DNA from: Streptomyces achromogenes
GTDB taxonomy: Bacteria; Actinomycetota; Actinomycetes; Streptomycetales; Streptomycetaceae
Length of the DNA stretch: 64,000 bases
Direction of reading: 5' to 3'
Assembly: GCF_030816715.1 (NCBI RefSeq)
Contig: NZ_JAUSYH010000001.1
Span: forward strand, 8,804,001 to 8,868,000
Below, in pieces: positions 16,901-31,688 of the stretch. Positions within the stretch are counted from its first letter, which is position 1; every line of letters begins with the position of its first letter. Both the position numbers and the translations under genes were made by a program. The notes under the pieces are model-generated. The model was not told the DNA's origin, made no database searches, and saw only the letters and a list, made by a program, of their open reading frames with translations.

Positions 16901-17492
16901 GGCCGGCCAGCCGTTCGTCCAGTGGGTGCCTCTCGATCCGGGCGGACAACTCGCCCAGCAATCCGCTGTGGTGACCGCGGCGGAGCCGAACGTCGGTGTG
17001 GTCGAGTTCGGCAGCGAGCCGGTCCCGGTCCACGGCATCGCGGAGGGCGTTGATCCAAGGGGTGTCCAAACCCGCGAAGGCGTTTCCCCGCCAGAGGCCG
17101 AGTGCCTGCCCGAACAGGGCCGCAGCCTGCTCGTCCTGCACACTCCGCGCGGCTGCCCGAGCCCGGGCGACAAGGTCGTAGAAACGGTGCAGGTCCACTG
17201 CCGTCGCTTCGACGTCGAGGACATAGCCACCGGATCGCCGGACGATATCCACACCCTCGGTGACGGCCAGAGCCTGCCGCAGACGGGAGACATAGCCGTA
17301 GAGCGTGTTCCGGGCCCGCTGCGGAAGACGGTCGGCCCAGACGCGGTCGACAAGCTGGTCCACCGAAACCACCTGGTTGGCGTCGACGAGCAGCACGGCC
17401 AGCACACCCCGCTGCCGGGCGTGGCCCAGATCGACGATTCGGCCGTCCACGCGCGCCTCAACGCTGCCGAAGACAGCGAACTCAACCCCCAC
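13941..17492 (-). CDS. AfsR/SARP-type transcriptional activator with ATPase domain
   Basis: A large (1183 residues) regulator of the SARP-BTAD-ATPase architecture. Residues 1-90 form an OmpR-type winged helix (FAVFGSVEARVDG, then LGHARQRGVLAVLLVDANQV, later TLYGYVSRLRQAL). Residues about 95-245 form the BTAD helical domain (ALYRSGRPADALSQYRRIRL). An AAA/STAND-like ATPase follows with Walker A GEPGIGKTRLLGELEER and the B-like VLSLDDLQWTDDG. The C-terminal 500 residues are helical repeats of TPR character. No C-terminal LuxR helix-turn-helix is present. The GTG at 17492 is chosen because the winged helix begins right after it. It is divergent from a small secreted protein gene and near the 18.6-28 kb tailoring genes, which it might control; that is inference. 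Confidence 0.9.
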   Translation of the reverse strand: MGVEFAVFGSVEARVDGRIVDLGHARQRGVLAVLLVDANQVVSVDQLVDRVWADRLPQRARNTLYGYVSRLRQALAVTEGVDIVRRSGGYVLDVEATAVDLHRFYDLVARARAAARSVQDEQAAALFGQALGLWRGNAFAGLDTPWINALRDAVDRDRLAAELDHTDVRLRRGHHSGLLGELSARIERHPLDERLAGQFILALYRSGRPADALSQYRRIRLLLAEELGCDPGVPLRQLHQQILTTDPALNVPPAGRATGSAPALVPRQLPAPHPGPTARFDVVLPGPQTPQRPRTGNRLIGRAAELAVLDGAIEDALAGVPGVVEVVGEPGIGKTRLLGELEERARQRGFVSLAGRSVEFDRAPYGAFVDALDDHLGNLDSGRLRQDGSPSGALALLSTVFPALSERLPTGPDPVTVERYWFHRAVRTLLEALSADGGLVLSLDDLQWTDDGTAELIDHLVRHPPRTPLLLALAYRPRQAPPRLAAALARAGTQQRVARVELGPLSPAEGAELCGARRDHWRFQRLYEASGGNPFYLEALTRSVAHESPSAVPAPVAGDLPQSVHAALLEELGGLSATARVCTEAAAVLGDSFEADMVAVVAQTGETQALAALDEAAERDLIRQIGSTRQFQFRHPLVRAAVYQGAGGGWRIEAHARAAVGLALRGAPLTVQASHVQRSARVGDERAVDVLVRAARQVMTVAPATAAHWTHEALRLLGTQSRLRPELWIQQANALGMAGRVLESRDVLRTASSFLPAPARGQRARVTALRATMEWALGRYEEATALLLRELADHEGRLTPETAALELGVAVVALRTNDFSTAVDWGERALRSSERIGDPPQATAVRALLALAHTCAGDARATDYLDLVAATLDDTDDQQLAGQMDTLVMTGWTEMLHERYDAALGHLDRGLEVSRRTGQSLVLADLFAASAYTYMWLGRLDEAATYASDALEAASLVGSSEPRSLAEVVSAAVAMWRGDFAEALKICEESLSPDGPALGAHRSAMVGMLGQTLLLNDDPKGCVSKVLEAGGGPHLFGFEAPVRPMWFRLLSVAQLALGDVTAAEGWADRAAAAATSDGPPGRRGFALLARAEVQLARQNPAAGPTACEAATEFRAARMLLNEGMARLTAGTALSAFGRQTEGLAQLEQAKSLSVTCGALALSELADQEHHRIAVQPPPATTGT

Positions 17493-18619: not shown

Positions 18620-19339
18620 CTAACGGACGGGGAATGTGTCCCCTGCCGGATTGCCGACGATCCCTTCCAGCTCCTGCCGCACGCCAGGGTCGATGCCGCC
18701 TCTGCTCCAGTACCACCTGCACAACTGCGGCACCTGCGCCGTGTGTGCGTCGTACCAGGCGAACGCGGTGCAGTGGGTGGCGAAGGCGTGGGCACCGAGC
18801 ACGTTGAACTCGGAGAAGCCCCGAGGCGGCCGACCCGCCACATAGCGGTCCAGCGGCATTCCGTGACGCTCCAGGGACAGGGCGCGCACTTGCGCATAGA
18901 GTCGGCGCGGGTAGGTGAAGGGCGGCTGCTGCATGAAGTCGTAGGCGACCGGCCGGCCCAGGAACTCCTCCGTCGGGGCGACCCAGGGCCGGTGCCGGCC
19001 GAGCTGGGAAACCGCCCGGCGGACGATCCACGGGCGGCCGCCGTCCAGAAGGTCTGCGGGGGAGACGGGGCGGGTGAAGATGACATCCGAGTCGACGTGG
19101 CAGATGAGGCCGGCGGCCGTGAACTCGTCCGCGTACAGCTTGCTCACCTGCTGCCCCAGGTAGTCGTCCCGGTAGTCCGGGCAGATCTCCAGACGTACGT
19201 CGCCGCCGACCGCTCGGCGCACAGCGGCCGATCCGGTGCGCGGGGTGATCACGACGACTTCGGCGAACCCGTGGCACCACGTCTCGATGGCCGCCAGCGC
19301 GTACCTCAGCCACGGGACATCCCGGTGGTAGGTGCGCAC
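18620..19339 (-). CDS. DUF6492-type glycosyltransferase-like protein
   Basis: About 240 residues. It looks like a GT-A-fold glycosyltransferase of the DUF6492 group: VRTYHRDVPWLRYALAAIET at the N-terminus, VVVITPRTGSAAVRRA as the first Rossmann strand, and CHVDSDVIF, a DxD motif, for metal and sugar-nucleotide binding. Later come PRGFSEFNVLGAHAF and GGIDPGVRQELE. The start is uncertain. The only in-frame usual start is the GTG at 19339, but the conserved reading seems to begin a few codons earlier (CSERTALLVRTYH). A non-standard start or a lost ATG is possible. It is divergent from the pyruvyltransferase gene with only about 24 bp between. Confidence 0.65.
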   Translation of the reverse strand: MRTYHRDVPWLRYALAAIETWCHGFAEVVVITPRTGSAAVRRAVGGDVRLEICPDYRDDYLGQQVSKLYADEFTAAGLICHVDSDVIFTRPVSPADLLDGGRPWIVRRAVSQLGRHRPWVAPTEEFLGRPVAYDFMQQPPFTYPRRLYAQVRALSLERHGMPLDRYVAGRPPRGFSEFNVLGAHAFATHCTAFAWYDAHTAQVPQLCRWYWSRGGIDPGVRQELEGIVGNPAGDTFPVR

Positions 19340-19363
19340 GAGAAGGGCGGTCCGTTCGCTACA

Positions 19364-20137
19364 GTGAGTGACGTGGTCGATACCGTACCCGCCTTCTGGT
19401 GCCGGGCGCCCAGTCAGGGCAACGTTGGTGACCGGCTCACCCCCTGGCTGATCCGCCGGATCTCCGGAGCCCCGGCCCGGTGGGTCGCTCCGCATGCCCC
19501 GGGCCGCAAGCACTTCGTCACGGGCAGCGTGGTCGCGCTCGCGGGGCCGGGCTGCGTGGTGTGGGGAGCAGGGGTGATGGAGGCCGGCGAGTACGTGGAT
19601 CCGCGGGCCGAACTGCTCGCGGTCCGGGGGCCACTCACCCGGGAGGCGGCCCAGCGGTCGGGTGCGGCGTGCCTCCCGGTCTACGGTGACCCCGGTCTGC
19701 TGGTGCCCAGATACCTGCCGCGTCGCCCCGCCCGGGCGGGCGCAAGGCCCGCTGTCGTACCGCACTTCGCCGACAAGGCCCGGGCCCGGCGCGGCGTTCC
19801 GCAGGGCTGGCGAATCATCGACGTGCAGAACAGCGTCGAGGACGTCGTCGAGCAGCTCATGGGTGCCTGTCTGGTCGCCTCGTCCAGCCTGCACGGCATC
19901 GTCCTCAGCCACGCCTACGGGATTCCCGCTGTCTGGATCAGCTTCCGGGACCTGCCCAGCGGCGACGGCAGCAAGTTTCACGACTACTTCCTCTCTGTCG
20001 GGGTGCCGGTACCGCCCCCGGTGTCCGTCGGTCCGGTCGGCGCCGGTTTGGACGCGGTCGCGCTGAGTGATTTCGCGACGCTCCCCACACATTTCCCTGA
20101 CCTGGACCTGCTCCTCGAGAGGTGCCCCTTCCGTTGA
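19364..20137 (+). CDS. Polysaccharide pyruvyltransferase family protein
   Basis: A 257-residue member of the polysaccharide pyruvyltransferase (CsaB-like) family, which adds a pyruvyl ketal to a sugar from phosphoenolpyruvate. Family marks are FWCRAPSQGNVGDRLTPWLI at the N-terminus, VWGAGVM, VRGPLTREAAQRSG, VYGDPGLLVPRYLP and the C-terminal SSLHGIVLSHAYGIPAVWI. The start is the GTG at 19364. It overlaps the next gene by 16 bp, implying translational coupling with the hydroxylase. Confidence 0.85.
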   Translation: MSDVVDTVPAFWCRAPSQGNVGDRLTPWLIRRISGAPARWVAPHAPGRKHFVTGSVVALAGPGCVVWGAGVMEAGEYVDPRAELLAVRGPLTREAAQRSGAACLPVYGDPGLLVPRYLPRRPARAGARPAVVPHFADKARARRGVPQGWRIIDVQNSVEDVVEQLMGACLVASSSLHGIVLSHAYGIPAVWISFRDLPSGDGSKFHDYFLSVGVPVPPPVSVGPVGAGLDAVALSDFATLPTHFPDLDLLLERCPFR

Positions 20138-20970
20138 CCGGTGAAGATCGAGACCAGCACCACGATCAGGACCATCCTCCGGATCCGCGACTGCTCCTGG
20201 ACGGCATCCGCGACGCCAACTACCACCGCGCCGGCATCCGCTGTCTGCGGCTGTTCTCCGCGGACGCCCCGACCGCGAAGAGACTTGCCGCGGAGGTGGA
20301 GCGGTTGCGCGCCCGGCACACTCCCTCGCTGGCGAGCGCCACGGGCCATGTGACGGCATGGGCCGGTCCGCGGGGCCGGGTGGAGCAGTTCAGTCTGCTC
20401 AACGCCTCCGGGCGCTGTGACGACTTCTCCCGGGATCACGATCTGTCGTGTTTCGGCAAGGGCTTTCACCATCGCGCGCACTATCCCGCGTTGGCCGCGC
20501 TGGTCGAAGCTCTGCCGCACTTGGTCAACTTCCGGATCAACGTGCTCGGCCCAGGTGCCGCGCTCGCGCCGCACGAGGAGCACAGTGTCGTGCGGACGCG
20601 GACCGGCACCGTAGGCGTACGAGCCCGATTCCACCTGCCGCTGGTCACCAACCCGCAGGCGTCCCTGCAACTCGAGGGCGATATCCACCACTTGGAGGCC
20701 GGCAACGTCTACCTGGTCAATCACGGCTGTGTGCATGCGGCCGCGAACGCCGGGGCCGCGGACCGGATCCACCTCGTGTGGGACATGCTGCTCACCGCCA
20801 CCGCCGCCGAGGTGATGTTCGGGACGGCAGCGGCGCCCGAGGGATTCACCCGTACGCGGGTACGCGCCGTACGCCCCGCGGGTCGGCGGACGGTGACCCG
20901 GTGGGAACGGATCGCGCCGCAGGTCACGGAGGCCGAGGCCCGGCACGTCGGCTTCCTCGAGCCGCAGTAG
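20122..20970 (+). CDS. Aspartyl/asparaginyl beta-hydroxylase-type 2OG oxygenase
   Basis: A 282-residue iron(II)/2-oxoglutarate oxygenase of the aspartyl/asparaginyl beta-hydroxylase fold. LVNFRINVLGPGAALAPHEE is followed by RARFHLPLVTNPQASLQLEG and VYLVNHGCVHAAANAG with DRIHLVWDM. The RFHLPL arginine and the distal HAAANAG histidine followed by the R of DRIHL fit the family; the first ligand is probably in APHEEH. The GTG start at 20122 lies inside the end of the pyruvyltransferase gene. It may act on a peptide or small molecule made by the locus. The stop is 6 bp from the convergent fusion gene. Confidence 0.8.
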   Translation: MPLPLTGEDRDQHHDQDHPPDPRLLLDGIRDANYHRAGIRCLRLFSADAPTAKRLAAEVERLRARHTPSLASATGHVTAWAGPRGRVEQFSLLNASGRCDDFSRDHDLSCFGKGFHHRAHYPALAALVEALPHLVNFRINVLGPGAALAPHEEHSVVRTRTGTVGVRARFHLPLVTNPQASLQLEGDIHHLEAGNVYLVNHGCVHAAANAGAADRIHLVWDMLLTATAAEVMFGTAAAPEGFTRTRVRAVRPAGRRTVTRWERIAPQVTEAEARHVGFLEPQ

Positions 20971-20975
20971 CCGCT

Positions 20976-23057
20976 TCAGTACAGGGTCCTGGAGAACTCG
21001 GCCGGGACGTAGTGGAACAGCAAAGAGGTGTGAGTGCTCCCGTCCGGCAGCGGCGGGCGCCAGTGCGCTACCCGGGTGCCCCTGAAGAGCACGGCCTCGC
21101 CGGGACACTGGAGTAGGGAGACGGACCCCCGGCCCGTGTCGAGGTGCAGCGGCCAGCCGCCTGCAATTCCCGATCCCGACTCCCCGAGCAGCAGGGAGAC
21201 CGTGTACTCGCACTGCTCGCGGTCAACGTGCCGGTCCAGGACGGCGCCGCCGCGGTACGCGGAGACGTAGGAGTACGAGGGTCGTACCGGCCGTCCGGCC
21301 AGGCGGCCCACCAAAGCGCGGAACTGATGGTGGAAGAAGCGCGACAGCGACTCGTTGTACCAGCCGTAACGGCCTTTCACCTGGGCGTCTCCGAGCGGCC
21401 AGGAGCCGGTCGCGATGAGCCGTTCGTAATAGTCGAGCAGCGCCTCGCGATGGCGGGGGTGCAGCAGGCGGCCCATACCGCAGACATCGGTGCGGGCGAA
21501 CTCCTCGGAGGCGGCGGCCACGGTGTCTTCGGCCCGAGCCGTCCGCCGGGCGCGCACCTCCGCAGCCCCGAGCGCACCGGCTCCGGCGAGCGAGGCGCGC
21601 AGCCGTGCGGGGAACCCTGGAGGAAGGGGGCGTCCGGGGGTGAGTTCGCGCAGCGCCCAGAACTCCTCGAAACGGATCCAGTACGGAACGAGTGCCCCGG
21701 TGGCGGGTTCGTCGGTCCACAGGATGGGGTGGCCGGGCAAGAACCGGTCCCGGAAGCGCGCGCGGCGCGCCAGCCCCAGGGGGATGGTGACCCCTGCCTG
21801 GAGCACCACGGCCGGATCGAGCACCATGCCATCGCGATGGCTCATCGTCTCGACGGTGGCCGGCGCATCGGGGTCCACGTCGTGTAGCCAGCAGGCGAAG
21901 GAGGGGAGATCACGGGTGGCCGCACGCGTGGCCGGCGCGCCCTGGGCTGCCGGGGAGGCCGGGGTGGACTTGGGCATCGTGGTGCGTCCGTTCGTGAGGC
22001 GCTGCAAGGTCTCCTGCACGGCATCGAGCGCCGACGGGTCGAAGCCGGGGGTGTGGCGCCATTTGCCGGAGCGTGGGGGGCTGATCGTCGTGGCCGACAG
22101 CGGCAGGTCCCAGCCCCGCGGTGTTGCGGGCAGTCCGAGCACCGCCTCCAACCACCGCAGCGTTCGAGCCGGTGCACTGCGCAGTTCGGCGTAGTCGACG
22201 TCCACCCATGGGACGTCCGGACGAAGGGCCCGGGCATCCAGGATCGCCTCCACGGCAGCGGCCCACTGTCGGGCCGCGATCCGGGTGAGGTCCTCGCCGG
22301 CCCACGCCCGCCAGCCTGTCGGCAGCAGGAAGTGCCAGGCCCGCCGGGGCCAGCCGGGCAGGTCCGGGATGTTGACGAATCCCGGGTGGGCCCATGCCCG
22401 CACCATGCTGGCCACCGTGTCGCGGGCCTCGCGGTGCAGGTGGACGACCGTGGCATCCGGAAACAGGTGCAGCAGGAAGGGGAGCCGCAGGCTGTTCTCC
22501 GGGGTTTTCTCCAGCAGCCTGAGAGGCGCGGACCGCGGGCCGCCGTTCTCGAGCCGGCTTCGCCCTCGTGCATCGAGCAGATCGGCGAGGAAGCCCGCGC
22601 GCACCGGCCCAGCCCATGCTTCGGCATCCCGGGCACCCAGCGCGTGCGAGGCGTAGCCGCAGGCCGCCGGATGGAGTCCGGGCACCCCCTCGATCACCCC
22701 CTCGCTCTCCCCGCCGACCGTCCACAGGGCAGGGTTGCGGGCCAGGGCATCGAACAGCGCGGTGCTGCCCGAACGAGGCGGGGAGACGATGATCACGGGC
22801 GCCCCGAGCGCGGCCGCCGGGACGGCGCGTACCGGCCCGGTGACCGGTGTTCCCAGACCGGTCATTGCGGGGTCCCGTGCCGCGGAGAACCCCGAGGCCG
22901 CCGCGGCCGAGGCGAAGAGGAAGCGTGCGCGCACTCCACGGGCGTCGGCCCGCACACTGCGGGCCAGTAGCCCCGGCACATCAGGGAAGGGCCCGTGGTG
23001 CGTCGTGCGCGCCTCCCGCCGCGCGCGGCCGGAGGGGAGCTCCACATGGCCCGTCAC
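20976..23057 (-). CDS. Sulfotransferase fused to a 2OG-Fe(II) oxygenase
   Basis: A single unbroken frame encodes about 693 residues (724 if it starts at the ATG 23150, which overlaps the upstream stop). The N-terminal part is a sulfotransferase with the 5'-phosphosulfate loop VSPPRSGSTALFDALARNPA near residue 95 and the 3'-phosphate motif ATVVHLHREARDTVASMVRA. The C-terminal 300 residues are an oxygenase: VLDRHVDREQCEYTVSLLLG gives HxD, and LFRGTRVAHWRPPLPDG then HTSLLFHYV gives the distal His region. I know of no standard family with this fusion. The GTG at 23057 is chosen because GACGGGAG precedes it. It is downstream of and probably co-transcribed with the gene at 23132. Confidence 0.8.
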   Translation of the reverse strand: MTGHVELPSGRARREARTTHHGPFPDVPGLLARSVRADARGVRARFLFASAAAASGFSAARDPAMTGLGTPVTGPVRAVPAAALGAPVIIVSPPRSGSTALFDALARNPALWTVGGESEGVIEGVPGLHPAACGYASHALGARDAEAWAGPVRAGFLADLLDARGRSRLENGGPRSAPLRLLEKTPENSLRLPFLLHLFPDATVVHLHREARDTVASMVRAWAHPGFVNIPDLPGWPRRAWHFLLPTGWRAWAGEDLTRIAARQWAAAVEAILDARALRPDVPWVDVDYAELRSAPARTLRWLEAVLGLPATPRGWDLPLSATTISPPRSGKWRHTPGFDPSALDAVQETLQRLTNGRTTMPKSTPASPAAQGAPATRAATRDLPSFACWLHDVDPDAPATVETMSHRDGMVLDPAVVLQAGVTIPLGLARRARFRDRFLPGHPILWTDEPATGALVPYWIRFEEFWALRELTPGRPLPPGFPARLRASLAGAGALGAAEVRARRTARAEDTVAAASEEFARTDVCGMGRLLHPRHREALLDYYERLIATGSWPLGDAQVKGRYGWYNESLSRFFHHQFRALVGRLAGRPVRPSYSYVSAYRGGAVLDRHVDREQCEYTVSLLLGESGSGIAGGWPLHLDTGRGSVSLLQCPGEAVLFRGTRVAHWRPPLPDGSTHTSLLFHYVPAEFSRTLY

Positions 23058-23131
23058 GGACCAGGCCGTGAACTCCCGTCGTTCCTTCAGTCCGTTCCGC
23101 CCGCTGTCTTCCCGAGCGTCCTGCCGGCCGC

Positions 23132-24493
23132 TCACTTCCGGTGGATCCAACCGGTCACGCTGAACCGGCTGTCGGCGAACGCCTTGCTCGGCACCCGGAT
23201 GGGCAGGACCTCGTGGTCGTGCCGGCTCGGGAAGAACATCGCCAGGTTCGAGCGCGGCACGATCGTCTGGCTGCGATCCGTGGGGACGACCTGCCCGTCC
23301 TCCACGATCGTCTCGAAGACGCGCAGTTCCCCACCGGAGAACCGGCGGGGCTCGGCAGAGAAGAAGTAGACGAACGTGAGCTCGCGTGTGTCCCCGCCAT
23401 CGCTGTCACGGTGCATGCCGAAGTAGTCCCGGTCGCCGTTTGCCGTCACCTGCAGTTCGATACGGCCCAGCGGGAAAGCCGGGTGGCCCAGGCGGGACCG
23501 TACCGCCTCGAGTTGCTCCTTGATGCGCTCCGTGAGCAACGCTTCGAAACGACCGAGCCCGTCGAGGACCAGGCTGCTGCGGATCCGCTCATCCACCACC
23601 GCAGAGCGAGTCCCGCGCGGCTGGACGGTCGCCGCCGAAAACTCGGATTCCCTGCCCAGCACGTACTGGAGAAGCTCGTGCTGCTCCGCTTCGGTGAGGA
23701 ACTCGCGCACCCCCTGGGCGACCTCGGCGATCACGTCCCTCTCGAACCGGCCTGTCCCCGTCGGCACTCCCGCCGGCTTGCTGTAGTGGCCGCCCCGCAC
23801 CAGGCGGGCGATCTCGGACGGGACGCTCACCCGGTCAGCCGTCCATTCCGCGCGCGATCCCAGATACACGGTCCCGTGAAAGGCGGCGTTGCGCTCGTAC
23901 ACGTCATCCTCGACCGCGCCCGCGAGCACGTCGACGGAGTCGGTCCCGGCCAGACCGAGGCTCTCCAGCAGCTCACCGGCCGGCGCGCGGTAGGTGAGAT
24001 AGCGCGCCGCCTCGGTGAGGAAGACATCCTCCGTGCGCTGGAAGCCGACCCGGCGCAGGGTCAGGTCTGCAAGCCTCGAGTCCTCGGCGATGAGGTAGTG
24101 CACCTCGGCGCCGGGGTCGACGGCCAGAGTCTCCAGCGCCTCCTTGTACAGCGCGGCGCACAGCCCGGTATTCGTCAGACTCTCATCGCCGACGTGCACC
24201 GGGCTCAGCCCCCAACAGCCGTCGGAGACCAGGTGCGTCTGCAAGACGGCGACGATGTTGCGCGCACCCAGACCCCACGGCGGCCACGGCCGGTCGCGGA
24301 CCGCGGCGAAGATCTGCGAATCGCCGTCATAGAACATGGGCAGCACCACCTCGTCCATCAGATGCGGTGCGCCCGTCCGTCGGAAGAACTCGTACAGGGC
24401 CGCCTTCGCGGTGTCACTGAGCTCGTCGAAGATCTCGATCCGCGTGCCGCCGTTGCGATCCGTGAAGAAGTCGCGTCTGATGAGCTGGGTCAT
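23132..24493 (-). CDS. 2OG-Fe(II) oxygenase with GNAT-like N-terminal half
   Basis: 453 residues. The C-terminal 200 form a prolyl-hydroxylase-like oxygenase: H361 and D363 in GMHRDSDGG, distal H427 in SRHDHEVLPI, and 2OG-binding R443 in SRFSVTGW. The N-terminal half (ALYKEALETLAVDPGAEVHY then LADLTLRRVGFQRTEDVFLT) has the helix-strand and lGF pattern of GNAT acyltransferases; that is a weaker call. The ATG at 24493 is the native start, but an IS30 copy begins 7 bases upstream (24500), and the old ribosome site (AGGAG) is now at the far side of the element near 26002. The open frame continues into the IS, so expression may now depend on readthrough from the transposase gene. Confidence 0.85.
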   Translation of the reverse strand: MTQLIRRDFFTDRNGGTRIEIFDELSDTAKAALYEFFRRTGAPHLMDEVVLPMFYDGDSQIFAAVRDRPWPPWGLGARNIVAVLQTHLVSDGCWGLSPVHVGDESLTNTGLCAALYKEALETLAVDPGAEVHYLIAEDSRLADLTLRRVGFQRTEDVFLTEAARYLTYRAPAGELLESLGLAGTDSVDVLAGAVEDDVYERNAAFHGTVYLGSRAEWTADRVSVPSEIARLVRGGHYSKPAGVPTGTGRFERDVIAEVAQGVREFLTEAEQHELLQYVLGRESEFSAATVQPRGTRSAVVDERIRSSLVLDGLGRFEALLTERIKEQLEAVRSRLGHPAFPLGRIELQVTANGDRDYFGMHRDSDGGDTRELTFVYFFSAEPRRFSGGELRVFETIVEDGQVVPTDRSQTIVPRSNLAMFFPSRHDHEVLPIRVPSKAFADSRFSVTGWIHRK

Positions 24494-24499
24494 GGCCTC

Positions 24500-25995
24500 G
24501 GCGAGTTCAACCAGTCGTTGCAACACCGGGCTGTTGCAGCGAGCGTAGCTGTTCTTCGAAGACCTCGGTCGGCGTCCGCCAACCCAGGACTTTGCGGGGC
24601 CGGTTGTTGATCGCCATGGCGACGGCTTCGAGGTCCGTGAACGACCAGCGGGAGAGATCGGTGCCCTTCGGGAAGTACTGGCGCAGCAGCCCGTTCGTGT
24701 TCTCGTTCGTCGGTCGTTGCCAGGGCGAGTGCGGATCGGCGAAGAACACCTTCGTCCCGGTATCGAGGGCGAACTGGGCATGAGCGGAGAGTTCCTTCCC
24801 GCGGTCCCAGGTGAGGGTTTTGCGTAGCTGCTCAGGCAATTGCGTCATCGACGTGGTGAGCGCTGTGTTCATCGCGATCGCGCCATAGCCCCCGAGCGAG
24901 GGGCCGTTCTTCACGGGCGGCTTCTCGCCCCAGCCCTCGAGCCGGGGCAGGTGCACCAGGAGCGTGGAGCGGCTGCTGCGCTCGACGAGCGTGCCGATCG
25001 CGGAGCGGCCCGTCCCGATGATCAAATCGCCTTCCCAGTGTCCGGGGACCGCGCGGTCCGTGGCCTCGGCGGGGCGTTCGCTGAGGACGACGTCCGCGGT
25101 GACATGCCCCTGCGGTTTGTTCTGCGACCGTGCACGGGGAGTCCGCAGCGCCCGGCCGGTACGCAGACACGTGACCAGCTCCCGCTTGAGCGCGCCACGG
25201 CCCTCGATGAACAGCGCCTGGTAGATCGCTTCGTGGCTGATGCGCATGGACTCATCATCGGGGAAGTCGGCATGGAGACGGTGCGAGATCTGCTCCGGGC
25301 TCCATGCCGTCGCCCATCGTCTGTCCTGCCGGTGCGGCTTGTTCAGCCCCTTCCATGCGGGCGTCCTGGGTCCGGGGACGATCGTGCTGTCGGGGCGGCG
25401 GATGCTGTCGGCGAGCCGGTCCTGCACGTACTCACGCAACCTGTCGTTGCCTGCGAGCTTCGCGGTCTTCGGCCGCTTGGCGGCCTGCTGTGCTTTCCAC
25501 TGGGCGACCGTCGCGCGGTACTCCTGCTTGCCGCTGCGCGTGGCGGCGTTGCGGCGCAGTTCGCGAGAGATCGTTCCGGGGTCACGCCCCAGGGCGCGGG
25601 CGATCTCGCGCACGCCCTTGCTCATCGCCCTGAGGATCGCGATCTCCTCGCGCTCTTCGAACGTGAGGTACCGGCCCGTGGGCTCGGCCAACGAGATCGG
25701 AGGCATGCCGCCAGCGTGACGAAACCACCTCGCACCCACCGGCCACGACACGCCGACCGCCAACGACGCCTCCACCGTCGTGACCCCCGTGGCGATCAGT
25801 CGCCAGAACTGGCGCTGCACGACCCGAGACGGATCAGGCCGCCCCGGCGAACGCATCGCCGGCCGCAACGCACGGTCAGCGCGCCACTGCCGACGCCGCC
25901 CCTCCGGGACATCGCTGGTCTTCAAACTCCAGTCCGCCGTAGCCACGTCGCACACCTCCGAGATCAGGGTGTTGCGACGACCAGTTGAATCCACC
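24500..25995 (-). mobile_element. IS30-family element, copy 1 (1496 bp)
   Basis: Both ends are fixed by comparison with copy 2. The left end reads GGCGAGTTCAACCAGTCGTT and the right end, reversed, GGTGGATTCAACTGGTCGTC. The 28-bp inverted repeats match at about 22 positions and share CGCAACACC/TGCAACACC inner ends. A 3-bp direct repeat CTC flanks it (24497-24499 and 25996-25998). It sits in the divergent promoter region between the oxygenase operon and the glycosyltransferase at 26042. Confidence 0.95.
24507..25946 (-). CDS. IS30-family transposase, copy 1
   Basis: About 479 residues. It has the IS30 helix-turn-helix (RYLTFEEREEIAILRAMSKG, then VREIARALGRDPGTISRELR) and the DDE catalytic core: VPGHWEGDLIIG holds the first Asp, LTWDRGKE the second, and FADPHSPWQRPTNENTNGLL the Glu. 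GTG 25946 is preferred because GGAGG lies 8 bases upstream; the frame is open to 25994 inside the inverted repeat. It differs from copy 2 at two nearby bases, giving KPQGHV here against KPHGHV there. It appears intact. Confidence 0.95.
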   Translation of the reverse strand: MATADWSLKTSDVPEGRRRQWRADRALRPAMRSPGRPDPSRVVQRQFWRLIATGVTTVEASLAVGVSWPVGARWFRHAGGMPPISLAEPTGRYLTFEEREEIAILRAMSKGVREIARALGRDPGTISRELRRNAATRSGKQEYRATVAQWKAQQAAKRPKTAKLAGNDRLREYVQDRLADSIRRPDSTIVPGPRTPAWKGLNKPHRQDRRWATAWSPEQISHRLHADFPDDESMRISHEAIYQALFIEGRGALKRELVTCLRTGRALRTPRARSQNKPQGHVTADVVLSERPAEATDRAVPGHWEGDLIIGTGRSAIGTLVERSSRSTLLVHLPRLEGWGEKPPVKNGPSLGGYGAIAMNTALTTSMTQLPEQLRKTLTWDRGKELSAHAQFALDTGTKVFFADPHSPWQRPTNENTNGLLRQYFPKGTDLSRWSFTDLEAVAMAINNRPRKVLGWRTPTEVFEEQLRSLQQPGVATTG

Positions 25996-26041
25996 CTCTC
26001 CTGTCATGTCGCTGTGGTGATCCGGGTCTGGAGGACAACGG

Positions 26042-26968
26042 GTGGACCTCGCCGCCGGCGCACCTTTTCTGCGGGTGACCCGTCCCTGCGGCCAGGTACT
26101 GCCGTGGCTGGTGGTCCGGGCGCCCGTCGTCACACGCGCCCAACACGTACGCCTGGATCAGCTGGCCGCCGAGGGCTGCCGCTTCATCGGCGCCACCAGT
26201 TATCTGGGCTTCCCGGGGGCGGGCTTCCGTGACGAACGCGACTACGGGCTGCTCTGCGAGGCGTGGCTGCACTGCTTCCGGGACCCGGACCGCTTCCTGC
26301 CGCCGAACGGGTCGCGGGCCCGCGTGAGCGAGTCCGACTTCACCGACCCGCTCCGCGTCGCCCCGCGTATGGCGACACGAACCCTGCCCCCGGAACTGGT
26401 CGCGGACGTGGTCCACGTATCCGGTTCGGAACCCTGGCGGCAGCGGGCCAAGAACTGGCCGCTCGCCGCGCGCTGCCTGCGTCGGCTGGCCGAGGAGACG
26501 GGCCTGCGGATCCTGGTTGTCGACGCCCCTGACGACGCGGAACCGCCGCCCGGCGTCAGGCTGACAGGACCGCTGGAATGGCCGCTGCTGCTCGCCGCGA
26601 TCTCCGCTGCGCGCTGCCTGTTCGTACCGGCGGTTCTCGACGCGTCGCCGAGGGTGCTCGCCGAGGCGCTCTGCCTCGATGTGCCCGTCGTCGTCAATCA
26701 GGCGATCCTCGGCGGCTGGCAATACGTCAACCCGTTCACCGGGATCTTCTTCGACGGCACGGACGACGTGGTGCCCGCAGTCCTCGAGGTGGTCGCCGCC
26801 GAGAGCCGGCCGAGGGCCTGGTTCATGGCCCACCACGGGCCGGCGCGCGCGGGCGCGCGCCTGCTTCGCCTGCTGCGTACCCTCGACTCCTCGCTGCCGG
26901 CCCTCACCCACGTGCTTCTGGCCTCCGACCGCGGCGAGCGGGAACAGGCTGTGCCGGGGACACGTTGA
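26042..26968 (+). CDS. Glycosyltransferase (GT-B-like)
   Basis: 308 residues. The C-terminal domain has the shape of a GT4-like nucleotide-sugar binding half: VRLTGPLEWPLLLAAISAAR, then CLFVPAVLDASPRVLAEALC with the E of LAEAL, and LDVPVVVNQAILGGWQYVNP. The N-terminal acceptor half (TRAQHVRLDQLAAEGCRFIG) is short. GGAGG (26035-26039 region) precedes the GTG at 26042. It was divergent from the 24493 oxygenase before IS30 copy 1 entered between them. Its last 65 bp overlap, tail to tail, the DUF1826 gene. Confidence 0.7.
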   Translation: MDLAAGAPFLRVTRPCGQVLPWLVVRAPVVTRAQHVRLDQLAAEGCRFIGATSYLGFPGAGFRDERDYGLLCEAWLHCFRDPDRFLPPNGSRARVSESDFTDPLRVAPRMATRTLPPELVADVVHVSGSEPWRQRAKNWPLAARCLRRLAEETGLRILVVDAPDDAEPPPGVRLTGPLEWPLLLAAISAARCLFVPAVLDASPRVLAEALCLDVPVVVNQAILGGWQYVNPFTGIFFDGTDDVVPAVLEVVAAESRPRAWFMAHHGPARAGARLLRLLRTLDSSLPALTHVLLASDRGEREQAVPGTR

Positions 26969-27746
26969 GAACCAGCCTCGGAACGCCCTGCATGGGCGAT
27001 CGGTGGATCCACACGTCCGTCACGGGATGCGGCGACCAGTGCTGTCGTACGTCGATGTGCTTGAAGTAGACGGTCGCATCCCGTGGCACCCGGTGAACGG
27101 GGGCGCGGGGCCGCAGGAACGAGGGTGCCTCGTCCATGGCGATCAGCCGGCCGGGCGCCGAACTGGCGGCTCGCACGCTGCAGGTCCCGGCACCCGCCAT
27201 CCGTGACAGCCGCTCCCTGCGAGACAGGTAGGTGTAGAAAGCCGCCATGCTCAGCACGTCGTCGCAGGCCACGTACTCGGTCGTCGGACCGTTGTAGACC
27301 CGTACGGCACCGATCGTCGGCGCCTGAGGTGGGACCGTGTCGACGTGGAACCCGCAGCGGCGGGTGGGGGCCTCGGTGAACACCCGCACCATCACGCGCC
27401 CGACATAGGCCGTGGCCATGACCTGCTCCACGATCCCCGTCATGTCGTCCAGGAGTGGACCCGACACCGCCTTGGCCGTATCGGCGAGGGCGGTGCGGGA
27501 CCAGTGGGCGAAGTCGTCGAGGGAGGCCGCGGGCAGGGTCGTACGGGCGATGACGAGCCGCCGCGTGACCACCAGCTCGGCCAACTCGTCCAACCAGTCG
27601 GCATGTGCCTCCGGGGGGACGATGACCGCGGTCAGCCCGGGGTCCGTCAGCCGCGCGATGTCACGTGCCGTGGATCCGTGCAGGACACCTGAGGGGAACG
27701 TCTCCCCGTTCCGGATGATTGGGACCACGGGTCGCACCGTAGTCAC
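26904..27746 (-). CDS. DUF1826-type protein, probable 2OG-oxygenase-like fold
   Basis: 280 residues from the GTG at 27746. GFHVDTVPPQAPTIGAVRVY, then NGPTTEYVACDDVLS, matches the DUF1826 pattern, with a possible metal pair HxD in FHVD. A later PVTDVWIHRSPMQGVPRLVL has a histidine followed by an arginine at the spacing seen in jelly-roll oxygenases. The function of the family is not settled; the oxygenase fold is my inference. It is convergent with the glycosyltransferase at 26042 and downstream of the haem peroxidase on the same strand. Confidence 0.65.
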   Translation of the reverse strand: MTTVRPVVPIIRNGETFPSGVLHGSTARDIARLTDPGLTAVIVPPEAHADWLDELAELVVTRRLVIARTTLPAASLDDFAHWSRTALADTAKAVSGPLLDDMTGIVEQVMATAYVGRVMVRVFTEAPTRRCGFHVDTVPPQAPTIGAVRVYNGPTTEYVACDDVLSMAAFYTYLSRRERLSRMAGAGTCSVRAASSAPGRLIAMDEAPSFLRPRAPVHRVPRDATVYFKHIDVRQHWSPHPVTDVWIHRSPMQGVPRLVLNVSPAQPVPARRGRRPEARG

Positions 27747-28134
27747 CGGCTCGTCCGACAACCGGCCGACAGGCGAGGCACGAGGCGCGAGCACCCGTTC
27801 GGCTCAGACGCCGGTCCCGGCTCCCTCGGAATCAGGCCTCGAGGGGTGCTGCGGCAGGTTGGTCGGTGTCGTTCGACACCGACCTGGACGGCGCTCTTCA
27901 GGTCGCGTACGTAGCGGACGTGAACGGGGCCGGTGGCGACGAGGAGACGGCTCCTCGCCGGAGGGGCTCCCCGACGCCGCGTCAGAGATGGTCGCGTACG
28001 ACGTGCAGGAGGGGGGAGAGGTCCTGGCGGACGTCGGTACCGGCAGCGTGCCGGTACCGACGGCGTGGGTCACGCGCTCGACCAGGTCAGGTCAGGGTTG
28101 TGGACGGCGGCCAAGGCCAGAGGGCTCTCAGCTG
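27747..28134. other. Intergenic stretch holding a perfect inverted repeat
   Basis: Between the haem-peroxidase stop and the DUF1826 start. No convincing gene; a minus-strand open frame at 27804-28073 lacks motifs. Apart from the inverted repeat at 28033-28061 nothing stands out. Confidence 0.4.
28033..28061. promoter_or_regulatory. 13-bp perfect inverted repeat, operator or terminator
   Basis: GTCGGTACCGGCA and TGCCGGTACCGAC are separated by GCG; each arm holds a GGTACC palindrome. It lies 74 bp past the haem-peroxidase stop and about 290 bp before the DUF1826 start. It could end the first transcript or be a protein-binding site; there is no T tract to decide. Confidence 0.5.
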
Positions 28135-29988
28135 TCAGGAATCACCCGTGCCGGACTGCGCCTTGTGCCATGGCACGAATGCATTTGTCAGCCCCGCGAG
28201 GGCCGGGCGCAGCTCCGGGTGGTGCCGCAGGATCACCGTGGCCATGGAGTTGTCGTCGATCCAGGCCATGCCGGCCTTGGAGTACACCTCCGGGGTGTAG
28301 TACGAGGTGAAGAAGCGGTCACTGCTCAGCCTGACCGAAGCCATCAGGATGAAGATGCGGAACGCGGTGTTGCTGAAGGTGAACCCGGCCGGAAGCCTCT
28401 CGGCGTACATTCCGATCGTCAGGTCGACCTTCTCGATATCGTTCTCGTACAGCCGCTTGATCTCCTTGGCCCACGCCGCGTTGTCCGTAAGATCCTCGAA
28501 GTTCGCCGCGGGCTTCATCCGCAGAAGCCGGCGGAACTCGTTGTAGCGGGGGATGCCCAGCTCCCGGCTGCGCAGGATGTCGGTGGCGGCGAGGTCCTGG
28601 AGGTGCCCGTCGGGGCGCTGGTACTCCTGGAGAAACTTCGGGAAGTTGTGCAGGGTGACCAGTCCCGGGTGGAGTGTGCCGAAGCTGTAGAGCAGATCGC
28701 CCATGTTCGTGGTCTGGAGGACCTTCAGCGCCTCGGGTCCGGAGATGTCGCGCAAAGAGCAGTGGCGCAGGGTCTCGTTGTCGACGGCGGAGCGCAGGTC
28801 CCAATCGTCGCGGATCAGCGGATGCATGCGGTAGATGGCCACGAACTCCTCGGTGAGGGCGAACGGGGCGCCGTAGTGATCCGTTTTCGCGCCGGGGATG
28901 CCGCTGACGATCTCGCTGTCGCTGATTCGGCCAAGGAGGTTGTGGATGCGTTCCCCCGCGAGGCCCCACCAGTTGGTCTGCAGGGCCTTGACGGTCGTGG
29001 GATGGCTGATCACAGCCGGCGTCCACTCCACGGTGTGGATTTTGGCGATGAGCGCGGAGTTGACGAGCCGCGCCCGCTGGAACAGCTCCTCGTCGTCCCA
29101 GGACGGGTACGCGGCATGCAAGTGGTCGCAGACGGCGTTGTGCTCCCGGGCGAACAGGTTCTGCATGATCACCAGGCCCAGCCAGAAGCCGGGCACCCGC
29201 GACGGGTCACGAGAGGGGTCGGGGAACGGGGTCTGCTCGTCGTCCCACAGCCGCAGTCTGCCCAGCTCACCGGTGCGCAGTTGGCGTTGCTCCGCGTCAC
29301 TCGACCCGTAGATCTGCGAAGCGTCCCACCAGTGGGAGGAGACGTTGACGCGCGTGTCGGGCATCTCGGCATCCGCCTGCGGATCCCGGGTCGGGTCCTC
29401 GGGTGTCCGCATGATCCGCATCGGACGCTCCGGCCAGGGATCGTCGTCCATGAGGGGCACTTCCCAGGGCCGGTCCTCAGGATTCGTACCGTGGCTGAAC
29501 CAGTCGCGGATCATGAACTGCAGCCAGGTGGAGACGAGGGAGTTCACGGACTCGGCCGGGATCAACTCGTGACGGGTGAGCAGGGCTCGGCTGACGTCGC
29601 GCGGGTTCGGCCGGGATAGGACGTCCTCACGCGTGGCCGGCGCGATCTTGTCCAGCGGGATATTGCGGTTGAAGCGGGTGCCCGCCATGCCCATCCGAGG
29701 CTCGTCGAGGTCGTTGTAGCTGCCGTCGGCACTTCGGTTGACCTTGTGTTTCTCCAACTTCGGCCCGGGATCGGGAAGGTTGACCGAGGGTAGGTGCGTG
29801 GTGTCGTGGAGATTTTCCTGACGGAGCCTCACGCGCAGTCCGAAGAGGACCGCCAGGCCAGGAATCACGGCCAGCTTGTCCCAGCCGATGCGCCGGTCGA
29901 CATACTCGGCCAGATCGCCGGCGATCTTCCACGGAAGAGAGGCGGATGAGGAGCGGGAGCGGCGGAAGAGGGAACGTAGTGTGCTCAT
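28135..29988 (-). CDS. Animal-type haem peroxidase / fatty-acid dioxygenase-like protein
   Basis: 617 residues of the peroxidase-cyclooxygenase superfamily. WLQFMIRDWFSHG holds the distal haem residues in the place where alpha-dioxygenases have FMxHDW; here the usual His-Asp is Arg-Asp, with the histidine three residues on. SSHWWDASQIYGSSDAEQRQ is the calcium/substrate loop seen in the family. REHNAVCDHLHAAYPSWDDE, HTVEWTPAVISHPTTVKALQ and FVAIYRMHPLIRDD (proximal His) follow. No signal peptide is seen. ATG 29988 has AAAGGA upstream. It probably oxidises a lipid or small molecule; whether it belongs to the tailoring locus is inferred from position only. Confidence 0.85.
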   Translation of the reverse strand: MSTLRSLFRRSRSSSASLPWKIAGDLAEYVDRRIGWDKLAVIPGLAVLFGLRVRLRQENLHDTTHLPSVNLPDPGPKLEKHKVNRSADGSYNDLDEPRMGMAGTRFNRNIPLDKIAPATREDVLSRPNPRDVSRALLTRHELIPAESVNSLVSTWLQFMIRDWFSHGTNPEDRPWEVPLMDDDPWPERPMRIMRTPEDPTRDPQADAEMPDTRVNVSSHWWDASQIYGSSDAEQRQLRTGELGRLRLWDDEQTPFPDPSRDPSRVPGFWLGLVIMQNLFAREHNAVCDHLHAAYPSWDDEELFQRARLVNSALIAKIHTVEWTPAVISHPTTVKALQTNWWGLAGERIHNLLGRISDSEIVSGIPGAKTDHYGAPFALTEEFVAIYRMHPLIRDDWDLRSAVDNETLRHCSLRDISGPEALKVLQTTNMGDLLYSFGTLHPGLVTLHNFPKFLQEYQRPDGHLQDLAATDILRSRELGIPRYNEFRRLLRMKPAANFEDLTDNAAWAKEIKRLYENDIEKVDLTIGMYAERLPAGFTFSNTAFRIFILMASVRLSSDRFFTSYYTPEVYSKAGMAWIDDNSMATVILRHHPELRPALAGLTNAFVPWHKAQSGTGDS

Positions 29989-30290: not shown

Positions 30291-31226
30291 TCCTTCGTGC
30301 CGCTGCACGCCGCCGACGCCGCCACCGCGCCGCGTGATAGCGGCGCGATGTGGTCGGATCCCGTGCCGGGCTCGCGGAATACCGGACTCCGCCGTCACCG
30401 GGGCGCGGTCCGGGTCGAGGCGCCGGATGAGCAGGGTGGGCGCCGGCAGGCCAGCGATCCTGTTGACGAGCCGGGCGCCGACTGGCAGATGCCCGAGGTG
30501 AGCGGCCGGAAGGCGCGTTGCTTGGCCACGGTGGCTCCTCGGATCTCGGATTGCGTTGACCATTGCGCTGACCTCTGCCGCGATGGCGCACATGCGTCTC
30601 GACATCACATCTGAATCGGTCTGGCATTCACACTAGGAGACGTTCCGATCGCCTGCATGTCGGAACAGCGCCGTGAGGCTGTGGGTGAACTCCGGACAGC
30701 CCGGAAGGGAAGGGTGGTAGGCGAACGTAGGGCGCGGTGTGCCGGTCCACCTCAGTGGTAGGCCGGTCCGCTCGGAATCAGCAATTGTTGACGGCTTGAA
30801 TAGTCGCCGTTCATGACCTTCTTGAGGCCATGGGAGGTATCCACTACGCAGTGCGGATCCCGGAGGCGGCGGTTACGGTGGTATGCGGAAAGGGGCGTCG
30901 AGGTGCCGTCGCCCACTCAATGTCCCGTACATGTGCTGCAAGTCGCGGTCGGTAAATCCTGAAAGAACAAATCTGTGCCATCGAGAAATCCCCGACGGGG
31001 GATTTCGGGCTTCACGGGGGTGGTGGGCGTTCCGTTTCCGCTGACCTCCGTTATCGGCCCGGAGAAGCGGGGCAGTGAGTGTCGGCCGTTCGAGCGTTGT
31101 CACGTCCACCGCCGTCCGAGGGGCTTGCTTGTCGATGACGGGGCGATCGCCTCCGGCTGTGTCTCGACACGAGGGGATCGGCCCGCAGCTGAATCGGCCG
31201 AGGCCTCAAACGGAAGGGATTCGGAA
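30291..31226. other. Long stretch without a supported gene
   Basis: Nine hundred bases with only short, motif-free frames on both strands. A minus-strand frame at 30873-31109 has a passable composition (RFVLSGFTDRDLQHMYGTLS) but no family. A hairpin with 9-bp arms (GAAATCCCC 30985-30993, GGGGATTTC 30998-31006) lies about 220 bp upstream of the gene at 31227 and may act in its leader. Confidence 0.4.
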
Positions 31227-31688
31227 GTGCAAGCACAACTCACATTCGACGAGGTGCTCGGATACCTCAAAGACAGACCTGACGTGACCCGGACGTACCA
31301 GGTGCCGAGGGGGTCCATCTCCAGGCTTGCATGCGACGAGGCAGCGGGTATGCGAGAGATGGACGAGGCCGAGACTTCGCAGCTGGCCGACTATCTGGAC
31401 GTACCCGCCAAGGACCTCAGGGGACCCTTGAAGGTCGTTGACGTTCGGTGCTCCTACTGCACACACCACCTGTCCTTCCTCGACTTCGCCAAAACAGCGG
31501 TCGAATCAGGAGCACACGGGAAGGAAGGCCTACGTCAAGTGCTGACCGGCAAGAGTGGTGAGTGGATCACCATTCGCGGCCGGGACGGTGGTCGCCCGGT
31601 GAGCTGCGCGCAATGCGGCAACGACGTTCCACGCCCGATGGCCGGCTGCTATTCGGAGTACTCGTCGTCCGACTACGCATACGCCTGA
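31227..31688 (+). CDS. Unknown protein with paired CxxC motifs
   Basis: 153 residues. Two CxxC pairs, RCSYCTHH and SCAQCGND, about 60 residues apart suggest a zinc ribbon. The N-terminal part is acidic and helical (LTFDEVLGYLKDRPDVTRTY, then DEAETSQLADYLDVPA). The C-terminus ends in a Ser/Tyr-rich tail, CYSEYSSSDYAYA. The GTG at 31227 is chosen because CGGAAGGGATTCGGAA precedes it and coding character begins there. I do not recognise it. It stands alone between an IS scar and a recombinase scar. Confidence 0.65.
   Translation: MQAQLTFDEVLGYLKDRPDVTRTYQVPRGSISRLACDEAAGMREMDEAETSQLADYLDVPAKDLRGPLKVVDVRCSYCTHHLSFLDFAKTAVESGAHGKEGLRQVLTGKSGEWITIRGRDGGRPVSCAQCGNDVPRPMAGCYSEYSSSDYAYA

What the first reader, a model, noticed from the sequence alone, without database searches (positions are those of the whole stretch)
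18620..29988. Candidate undescribed tailoring locus with several iron/2OG oxygenases, a sulfotransferase and sugar enzymes
Within 11 kb, apart from the inserted IS30, there are eight intact genes: a DUF6492 glycosyltransferase-like protein, a polysaccharide pyruvyltransferase, an Asp/Asn hydroxylase, a sulfotransferase-oxygenase fusion, a GNAT-like/2OG protein, a GT-B-like glycosyltransferase, a DUF1826 protein and a haem peroxidase/dioxygenase. Three to four of these carry HxD...H iron sites. No PKS, NRPS or polymer synthase is seen in the window. The set suggests sulfation, pyruvylation and multiple hydroxylations of a glycan or glycosylated peptide. A SARP-type activator lies next to it at 13941-17492. 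The grouping is inference from position and overlapping genes.
Basis: partly seen in the sequence, partly recalled or inferred. Interest (0 to 1): 0.85.

Follow-up and report, generated by a model that had tools for sequence, protein, structure and literature searches.

The report
Seven-gene hydroxylation, sulfation and glycosylation cassette
A rare set of seven neighbouring enzyme genes, found together in five actinobacteria and one unrelated soil bacterium, looks like a portable kit that oxidises, sulfates and sugar-coats some still unknown molecule, most likely a peptide.

Summary
The locus is real but its borders differ from the finding. Seven genes form a conserved unit: DUF6492-like glycosyltransferase, pyruvyltransferase, Asp/Asn-hydroxylase-like protein, sulfotransferase-2OG fusion, GNAT-like-2OG fusion, GT-B-like glycosyltransferase and DUF1826. 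The same order and orientation occurs in four other actinobacteria (50-87% identity) without the IS30, SARP or haem peroxidase. The complete set, reshuffled, sits on a plasmid of the betaproteobacterium Eleftheria terrae (41-53%). No flanking ORF matches in more than one other of the six loci, so no precursor, exporter or regulator travels with it. It is rare: among 392 Streptomyces genomes the GNAT-like domain occurs in four, two of them with the full set.
The sulfotransferase-linked oxygenase has no Pfam match but models as a prolyl-4-hydroxylase-type fold. Relatives of both fused oxygenases sit together in one lasso-peptide-like cluster; other relatives lie beside lasso enzymes or a Nif11 precursor, but nine Streptomyces relatives do not. 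Smaller 2OG + GNAT-like + glycosyltransferase cassettes occur in other actinobacteria. Best reading: hydroxylations create acceptors for sulfate and sugar on a peptide or protein encoded elsewhere. The substrate is not shown. In this strain IS30 splits the ribosome-binding region of the GNAT-2OG gene.

The parts
18620..19339 (-). DUF6492-like GT-A-type glycosyltransferase; probable GTG start at 19339, next to the divergent pyruvyltransferase start
   Evidence: Pfam DUF6492 19.2 bits, below cut-off; orthologues in L005-L008 and L023 and relatives in mini-cassettes L044 37% and L052 35%; invariant D83 and D85 in 7 sequences
19364..20137 (+). polysaccharide pyruvyltransferase family protein (PF04230); start 19364 or 19373
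   Evidence: PF04230 2.4e-11; 47-87% identity in five other loci; start candidates
20122..20970 (+). aspartyl/asparaginyl beta-hydroxylase-like 2OG oxygenase (PF05118)
   Evidence: PF05118 2e-13; H151, H171, H205, R215 invariant in 6 sequences
20976..23045 (-). fusion of an N-terminal sulfotransferase and a C-terminal 2OG oxygenase domain (C-terminal part 20976-21977); probable GTG start near 23045
   Evidence: PF13469 1.1e-19; C-domain without Pfam match but AlphaFold2 model pLDDT 78 matching P4H/PHD2 folds at Z 16-17 (Foldseek); H250, D252, H305 invariant in 9 sequences
23132..24493 (-). fusion of a GNAT-like N-terminal domain and a C-terminal P4H-type 2OG oxygenase
   Evidence: PF13640 8.6e-15 at residues 348-451; H361, D363, H427, R443 invariant in 6 sequences; N-domain found as a separate gene beside a 2OG gene in L034, L035, L044, L051, L052
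24500..25995 (-). IS30-family insertion sequence, not part of the cassette; identical to the copy at 57058-58553; ends 6 bp upstream of the GNAT-2OG start codon, splitting the ribosome-binding region
   Evidence: 1496 bp identical block, GAG on both sides; no IS30 match in L005-L008 and L023
26042..26968 (+). GT-B-like glycosyltransferase
   Evidence: Glycos_transf_1 E 0.0015, below cut-off; Glyco_trans_1_4 2.8e-5, below cut-off, for the E. terrae orthologue; 49-79% identity in five other loci
26904..27746 (-). DUF1826 protein with an HxD...H...R pattern like that of 2OG oxygenases; probable GTG start at 27746
   Evidence: PF08856 22.5 bits, cut-off 22, E. terrae orthologue 37.5 bits; H134, D136, H248, R257 invariant in 6 sequences

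Best explanation
The seven genes are one horizontally moving pathway cassette that decorates a peptide or protein made elsewhere in the cell. Shown: the seven genes travel together, even when reshuffled. Inferred: up to four 2OG oxygenases (GNAT-2OG, sulfotransferase-2OG, Asp/Asn-hydroxylase-like, DUF1826) hydroxylate side chains. The two fusion proteins couple hydroxylation to the next step, so the sulfotransferase domain sulfates and the GNAT-like domain may acylate the residue just oxidised. The two glycosyltransferases place sugar on a hydroxyl, and the pyruvyltransferase adds a pyruvate ketal to that sugar. The core is hydroxylase plus GNAT-like plus glycosyltransferase, which exists alone in smaller cassettes; the other genes enlarge it.
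For: All seven genes in the same order and orientation in S. gardneri, S. flavotricini, S. smaragdinus and [Actinomadura] parvosata. All seven in E. terrae with a changed order. dN/dS of window genes against S. gardneri 0.17-0.49. Relatives of both fused oxygenase domains recur as a tandem in a Terriglobia MAG and inside a lasso-like cluster of Hyphomicrobiales UR115 with Asn synthase, PqqD, an HPr-kinase-like protein and a separate sulfotransferase. Of the six plasmid records matched by the GNAT-2OG query, three hold lasso-type genes (UR115, Azospirillum, Tistrella), one a Nif11 precursor, one an NRPS gene, one is E. terrae. The model of the sulfotransferase-linked domain matches prolyl hydroxylases of proteins, among others. 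Mini-cassettes of 2OG + GNAT-like + GT2 in L034, L035, L051, and with a DUF6492-like gene in L044 and L052; GNAT-like and 2OG are separate neighbouring genes there and fused here.
Against: No precursor peptide was found: of 1086 flanking ORFs of 20 aa or more none matches in more than one other of the six loci. The nine Streptomyces places where the GNAT-2OG query matched only its 2OG half (stretches L030-L033, L036-L040) show no lasso-type gene by tblastn, nor do the five mini-cassette stretches, so the link of this oxygenase family to ribosomal peptides is not general. The own genome has no lasso B2 match, nor do three others of the six genomes or records searched. The model also matches enzymes acting on free amino acids or small molecules (HalB, BesD, SnoN) at similar Z. 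No invariant Arg or Lys stands 8-12 residues after the distal His in the sulfotransferase-linked domain (the usual spacing is recalled). GNAT activity is unproven. The relatives in peptide clusters are only about 30-38% identical to the window's oxygenase domains.
Confidence: 0.42

Rival explanations
1. The cassette makes a free small molecule: a glycosylated, sulfated and pyruvylated derivative of an amino acid or amino sugar, assembled stepwise on free metabolites.
For: No precursor, carrier protein, exporter or regulator in the conserved unit. The modelled oxygenase domain also resembles amino-acid halogenases and hydroxylases (HalB, BesD homologues) and SnoN. Pyruvyl and sulfo groups are usual on sugars (recalled).
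Against: Several oxygenase relatives with informative context lie in ribosomal-peptide clusters; no ligase or sugar-nucleotide gene is in the set.
Confidence: 0.29
2. The cassette modifies a cell-surface polysaccharide or glycoprotein (sulfated, pyruvylated surface glycan), with the oxygenases acting on the protein anchor.
For: Pyruvyltransferase, two glycosyltransferases and a sulfotransferase in one unit; no secretion genes would be needed if a resident glycan is used.
Against: Four 2OG-type proteins are not expected for a surface glycan (recalled); no flippase or polymerase gene is among the seven.
Confidence: 0.15
3. The grouping is only a genomic neighbourhood of unrelated accessory genes in a chromosome arm.
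For: The window lies 0.3 Mb from the end of a 9.17 Mb contig, and Streptomyces arms collect accessory genes (recalled); the peroxidase, the SARP and the IS30 beside it are not conserved with it.
Against: Seven of seven genes conserved in all six loci, including a reshuffled set in another phylum, with no other shared ORF in more than two loci.
Confidence: 0.03

Closest known systems
Lasso-peptide clusters with 2OG tailoring enzymes (UR115, Azospirillum, Tistrella here; canucin CanE in print)
   Same: 2OG oxygenases related to the window's are encoded there; UR115 has relatives of both fused oxygenase domains plus a sulfotransferase. CanE beta-hydroxylates Asp14 of canucin A (passages of PMC9266682).
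   Different: The window locus has no Asn synthase, PqqD, B2 protein or precursor; it adds glycosyltransferases, a pyruvyltransferase, DUF1826 and two fusions. In UR115 itself no B2 match was found in the stretch held.
Mini-cassettes 2OG + GNAT-like + GT2, with or without DUF6492 (L034, L035, L044, L051, L052)
   Same: Same GNAT-like domain (28-30% identical, W70 P71 P72 invariant), a PF13640 2OG protein in the three tested, a DUF6492-like glycosyltransferase in two of five.
   Different: 2OG and GNAT-like are separate genes; no match to the sulfotransferase fusion, pyruvyltransferase, Asp/Asn hydroxylase or DUF1826; a family-2 glycosyltransferase instead of the GT-B type.
Prolyl 4-hydroxylase / PHD2 fold family
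   Same: The C-domain of the sulfotransferase fusion matches P. putida P4H (4j25_F, Z 16.7, rmsd 2.7, 165 aligned) and PHD2.
   Different: No Pfam model recognises it, identity 14-18% to these chains, fused to a sulfotransferase.

Membership tests
Ribosomal peptide (lasso) biosynthetic cluster | precursor peptide gene in or beside the cluster | tested here: not met
   0 of 1086 flanking ORFs match in more than one other of six loci; the lasso-leader pattern hit 2 ORFs in the window and 3 in L023, none in L005-L008; I judge them chance, four of the five lying in or against other genes. A precursor unique to each strain is not excluded.
Ribosomal peptide (lasso) biosynthetic cluster | lasso B2 protein (PF13471) available in the genome | tested here: not met
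   0 matches in the own genome; 2 of 6 genomes or records with the cassette have one, the E. terrae record being a plasmid only
2OG-Fe(II) oxygenase superfamily, sulfotransferase-linked domain | double-stranded beta-helix of the P4H type | tested here: met
   AlphaFold2 model pLDDT 78, pTM 0.78; best Z 17.6 over 177 residues, P4H Z 16.7 over 165
2OG-Fe(II) oxygenase superfamily, sulfotransferase-linked domain | HxD...H iron triad | tested here: met
   H250, D252, H305 invariant in 9 sequences; by sequence only
2OG-Fe(II) oxygenase superfamily, sulfotransferase-linked domain | basic residue for 2OG after the distal histidine | tested here: inconclusive
   No invariant Arg or Lys 8-12 residues after H305; R299 and R307 are invariant
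2OG-Fe(II) oxygenase superfamily, GNAT-2OG protein | Pfam match above cut-off and iron triad | tested here: met
   PF13640 55.9 bits against 27; H361, D363, H427, R443 invariant in 6 sequences
DUF1826 as a 2OG oxygenase | HxD...H...R pattern | tested here: inconclusive
   H134, D136, H248, R257 invariant in 6 sequences, but the PDB profile search gave only unrelated weak matches and no model was made
Aspartyl/asparaginyl beta-hydroxylase family (PF05118) | profile match above cut-off | tested here: met
   50.9 bits against 22.6
Polysaccharide pyruvyltransferase (PF04230) | profile match above cut-off | tested here: met
   44.5 bits against 25.3
PAPS sulfotransferase (PF13469) | profile match above cut-off | tested here: met
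   72 bits against 27
GNAT acetyltransferase | profile or fold match | tested here: inconclusive
   No match for the window domain; FR47 17 bits against 22.1 for L044; profile comparison empty (only 3 poorly related rows on the other side); model failed, pLDDT 33
SARP-regulated secondary-metabolite cluster | SARP conserved with the cluster | tested here: not met
   No SARP match in L005-L008 or L023; but a SARP-type regulator, 31% identical, lies directly before the mini-cassette of L052

The most novel reading that the evidence does not exclude
A new class of post-translational pathway in bacteria: a self-contained, horizontally moving kit that hydroxylates a ribosomally made peptide or host protein and then sulfates and pyruvyl-glycosylates the new hydroxyls, using bifunctional hydroxylase-sulfotransferase and hydroxylase-GNAT enzymes, with the target encoded elsewhere.
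Probability: 0.28. Interest if true: 0.85.

Novelty: new variant of a known kind. Interest (0 to 1): 0.6.

Why it matters
If right, it gives a defined seven-gene unit, with natural smaller versions, in which hydroxylation is coupled to sulfation and glycosylation. Sulfated and pyruvylated peptides of this kind would be new to me as natural products. It also suggests chemistry for DUF1826 and DUF6492-like proteins in this setting and for an oxygenase domain without a Pfam match. The unit is small enough to express in a laboratory Streptomyces host, so the question of its substrate is directly testable.

Tried and rejected
Peroxidase and SARP as members: rejected for the seven-gene unit. Two facts against a clean rejection: in unnamed Streptomyces G1013 (L051) a peroxidase 88-90% identical to the window's lies about 2 kb from a mini-cassette, and in unnamed actinobacterium G972 (L052) a SARP-type regulator, 31% identical to the window's, directly precedes a mini-cassette. 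Lasso peptide in trans: not supported. A shared precursor in the flanks: none; 10 of 1086 flanking ORFs have a match in one other locus, none in two, for example window about 31206-31469 with L006 14291-14866, and L007 with L023. One search was printed with cuts, so I repeated the comparison with all ORF lengths. A repeat peptide next to the mini-cassette of L052 has no match in the own genome; an empty answer there is weak. Lasso-type genes near the nine Streptomyces 2OG-only relatives and the five mini-cassettes: none by tblastn. Phage or viral carriage: no match with the GNAT-2OG query in phages at E 1e-8 or viral contigs; the other six proteins were not tried there. Defence role: PADLOC gave only a generic 2OG model for the GNAT-2OG protein, none for the other six. 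GNAT-2OG structure model: useless, pLDDT 33. PDB sequence profiles: one P4H for GNAT-2OG at E 0.00027; only weak matches for DUF1826, the GNAT-like domain and the sulfotransferase-linked domain. Literature: searches listed no description of the locus; only an open-licence library was searched, long result lists were shown in part, and of these papers I read only passages of PMC9266682 and PMC2770081; the others I saw as listings with the start of the abstract. dN/dS values are NG86 on diverged, GC-rich genes and rough; the DUF6492 value includes about 29 codons upstream that overlap the pyruvyltransferase.


Full report
WHERE IT LIES. The window is positions 8804001-8868000 of a 9.17 Mb contig, so the locus is near one end. 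That the organism is a Streptomyces is inferred: G690, listed as of the same genus, has a contig of the same length (180121) and the same tblastn scores as the S. gardneri record L005.

WHAT IS THERE. Codon-position GC content and Pfam give the following genes: DUF6492-like glycosyltransferase (18620-19339, -), pyruvyltransferase (19364-20137, +), Asp/Asn-hydroxylase-like protein (20122-20970, +), sulfotransferase-2OG fusion (20976 to about 23045, -), GNAT-like-2OG fusion (23132-24493, -), IS30 (24500-25995, -), GT-B-like glycosyltransferase (26042-26968, +), DUF1826 (26904-27746, -), haem peroxidase (28135-29988, -). Starts were chosen by comparison with the orthologues and are inferences; one search was printed with cuts.

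THE UNIT IS SEVEN GENES. One scan of genome contigs with the sulfotransferase fusion returned six loci. Four hold the full protein: S. gardneri, S. flavotricini, S. smaragdinus and [Actinomadura] parvosata. In these four, tblastn finds all seven genes in the same order and orientation and no match to IS30, SARP or peroxidase. The other two (a Terriglobia MAG and a Sulfotelmatobacter MAG) hold only the 2OG half. Comparing 1086 flanking ORFs of 20 aa or more from the six loci with the full set, 10 have a match in one other locus and none in two (earlier versions).

SAME SET, OTHER ORDER. In the plasmid collection six records match the GNAT-2OG protein; one is Eleftheria terrae, a betaproteobacterium, with 52.7% identity over 99% of the query. 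Its plasmid carries all seven genes at 41-53% identity, but DUF6492, pyruvyltransferase and hydroxylase are now co-directional, and DUF1826 with the GT-B gene lies between them and the GNAT-2OG gene. Retention of seven genes through rearrangement and transfer between phyla is the strongest evidence for one pathway. dN/dS of the window genes is 0.17-0.62 against the four actinobacteria (0.17-0.49 against S. gardneri) and 0.40-0.56 against E. terrae.

HOW RARE. Among 199 Streptomyces genomes (own included) 11 match the GNAT-2OG protein at 1e-15, but only the own one over its full length; nine of the other places match the 2OG half and two the GNAT-like half. The sulfotransferase-linked 2OG profile matches 1 of 396 actinobacterial genomes, the own one. 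The GNAT-like domain profile matches 4 of 392 Streptomyces genomes, 4 of 394 of the class and 3 of 396 of the phylum; these draws overlap and the own genome is in each. Of the four Streptomyces, the own genome and G690 carry the seven genes and two carry mini-cassettes.

MINI-CASSETTES. The GNAT-like domain occurs as a separate gene that overlaps or adjoins a 2OG gene and is followed by a family-2 glycosyltransferase in L034, L035 and L051; L044 and L052 have a DUF6492-like gene in between. So the two halves of the window's fusion are neighbours elsewhere. The 2OG half is of the same Pfam family (PF13640) in the three tested, L034, L035 and L052. This argues that hydroxylation, the GNAT-like step and glycosylation are the core. 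In L052 a SARP-type regulator directly precedes the cassette, and in L051 a peroxidase lies about 2 kb away; both resemble the window's neighbours, so a loose association of such genes is not excluded.

THE OXYGENASES. The C-domain of the sulfotransferase fusion has no Pfam match. Its AlphaFold2 model from seven sequences has mean pLDDT 78 and matches P. putida prolyl 4-hydroxylase, PHD2, SnoN and amino-acid halogenases at Z 15.8-17.6 in the rows shown (Foldseek). H250, D252 and H305 are invariant in nine sequences. The GNAT-2OG protein keeps H361, D363, H427 and R443 in six, DUF1826 H134, D136, H248 and R257 in six, the Asp/Asn-hydroxylase-like protein H151, H171, H205 and R215 in six. That such residues bind iron and 2OG is recalled family knowledge.

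CONTEXT OF RELATIVES, FOR. In Hyphomicrobiales UR115 a relative of each fused oxygenase domain (31% and 35% identity) stands beside ATP-grasp, Asn synthase, PqqD, sulfotransferase and HPr-kinase-like genes (the kinase match is below its Pfam cut-off). A 58-codon ORF there (L026 13990-14166) fits a lasso precursor by a recalled pattern; a B2 gene was not found in the stretch. Azospirillum and Tistrella relatives also stand with lasso-type genes. A Pseudanabaena relative follows a Nif11-type precursor. A Gloeocapsa relative lies near an NRPS gene.

CONTEXT OF RELATIVES, AGAINST. A Terriglobia MAG holds the two oxygenases in tandem where I recognised no peptide-cluster genes. Nine Streptomyces stretches with a 2OG-only relative (L030-L033, L036-L040) lie in varied neighbourhoods and have no match to lasso-type Asn synthase, PqqD, B2 or kinase queries; nor have the five mini-cassette stretches. 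One of the nine, L038, stands next to a collagen-repeat protein. The peptide reading is thus favoured by part of the evidence only.

WHAT IS MISSING. No precursor, exporter, regulator or assembly enzyme is conserved with the seven genes. The own genome has no lasso B2 match. The target therefore is encoded elsewhere, or differs in each strain, or is not a peptide.

THE IS30. A 1496-bp block identical to a second copy at 57058-58553 ends 6 bp upstream of the GNAT-2OG start codon. In S. gardneri the same place reads through an uninterrupted ribosome-binding sequence; here it is split, with GAG on both sides of the insert. The transposase runs in the same direction and its stop codon ends 13 bp before that start, so read-through expression is possible. 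Whether the pathway works in this strain is open.

VERDICT. The seven-gene unit is near certain as a unit (about 0.95 by my judgement), the peptide or protein target is the best reading (0.42), and the exact chemistry is inference. I file it as a new variant of a known kind, because each recognised enzyme family is known while the combination, the two fusions and the absence of a linked substrate are not described in the papers that my searches listed.

Noticed in passing
L038 8727-9569 (-) and 9627-10334 (+), unnamed Streptomyces G093: A collagen-repeat protein (PF01391, 4.3e-21) lies divergent to a P4H-type 2OG oxygenase (PF13640, 1.9e-18): a possible bacterial collagen with its own prolyl hydroxylase.
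   Followed up: partly
L026 7090-14166, Hyphomicrobiales UR115 plasmid: A lasso-like cluster with two 2OG oxygenases and a sulfotransferase; the candidate precursor at 13990-14166 (-) has Asn, Pro, Thr and Ser in the likely core. A sulfated lasso peptide is possible.
   Followed up: partly
L052 12941-13150 (+), unnamed actinobacterium G972: A 69-residue peptide with four near-identical 12-residue repeats and an AGGAGG ribosome-binding sequence, 1 kb from a mini-cassette and followed by an MFS transporter and a TPR protein; possible multi-core precursor.
   Followed up: partly
L051 4920-6773 (-), unnamed Streptomyces G1013: A haem peroxidase 88% identical to the window's lies about 2 kb from a mini-cassette, although the peroxidase family is far commoner than the cassette (29 of 121 Streptomyces genomes, against 4 of 392). 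Unexplained.
   Followed up: partly
L052 4931-8494 (+), unnamed actinobacterium G972: A SARP-type regulator (BTAD and AAA_16 domains) directly precedes the mini-cassette, as a SARP lies next to the cassette in the window.
   Followed up: partly
L051 8192-8713 (+): A type-I signal peptidase (PF10502) lies between that peroxidase and the mini-cassette.
   Followed up: no
L009 8769-9944 (+), Terriglobia MAG: The 2OG protein carries a long Pro-rich stretch before its oxygenase domain, possibly a fused substrate.
   Followed up: no
window 24500-25995 and 57058-58553: Two identical IS30 copies (1496 bp), each with a 3-bp repeat at its ends, hence recent transposition.
   Followed up: yes
window 1163-2593 (+): ORF of 476 aa that looks like a group II intron reverse transcriptase (recognised from memory; one search lists it).
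   Followed up: no
window 19340-19363: The divergent pyruvyltransferase and DUF6492 genes probably start only about 24 bp apart, so their promoters would lie inside each other's coding sequence.
   Followed up: no
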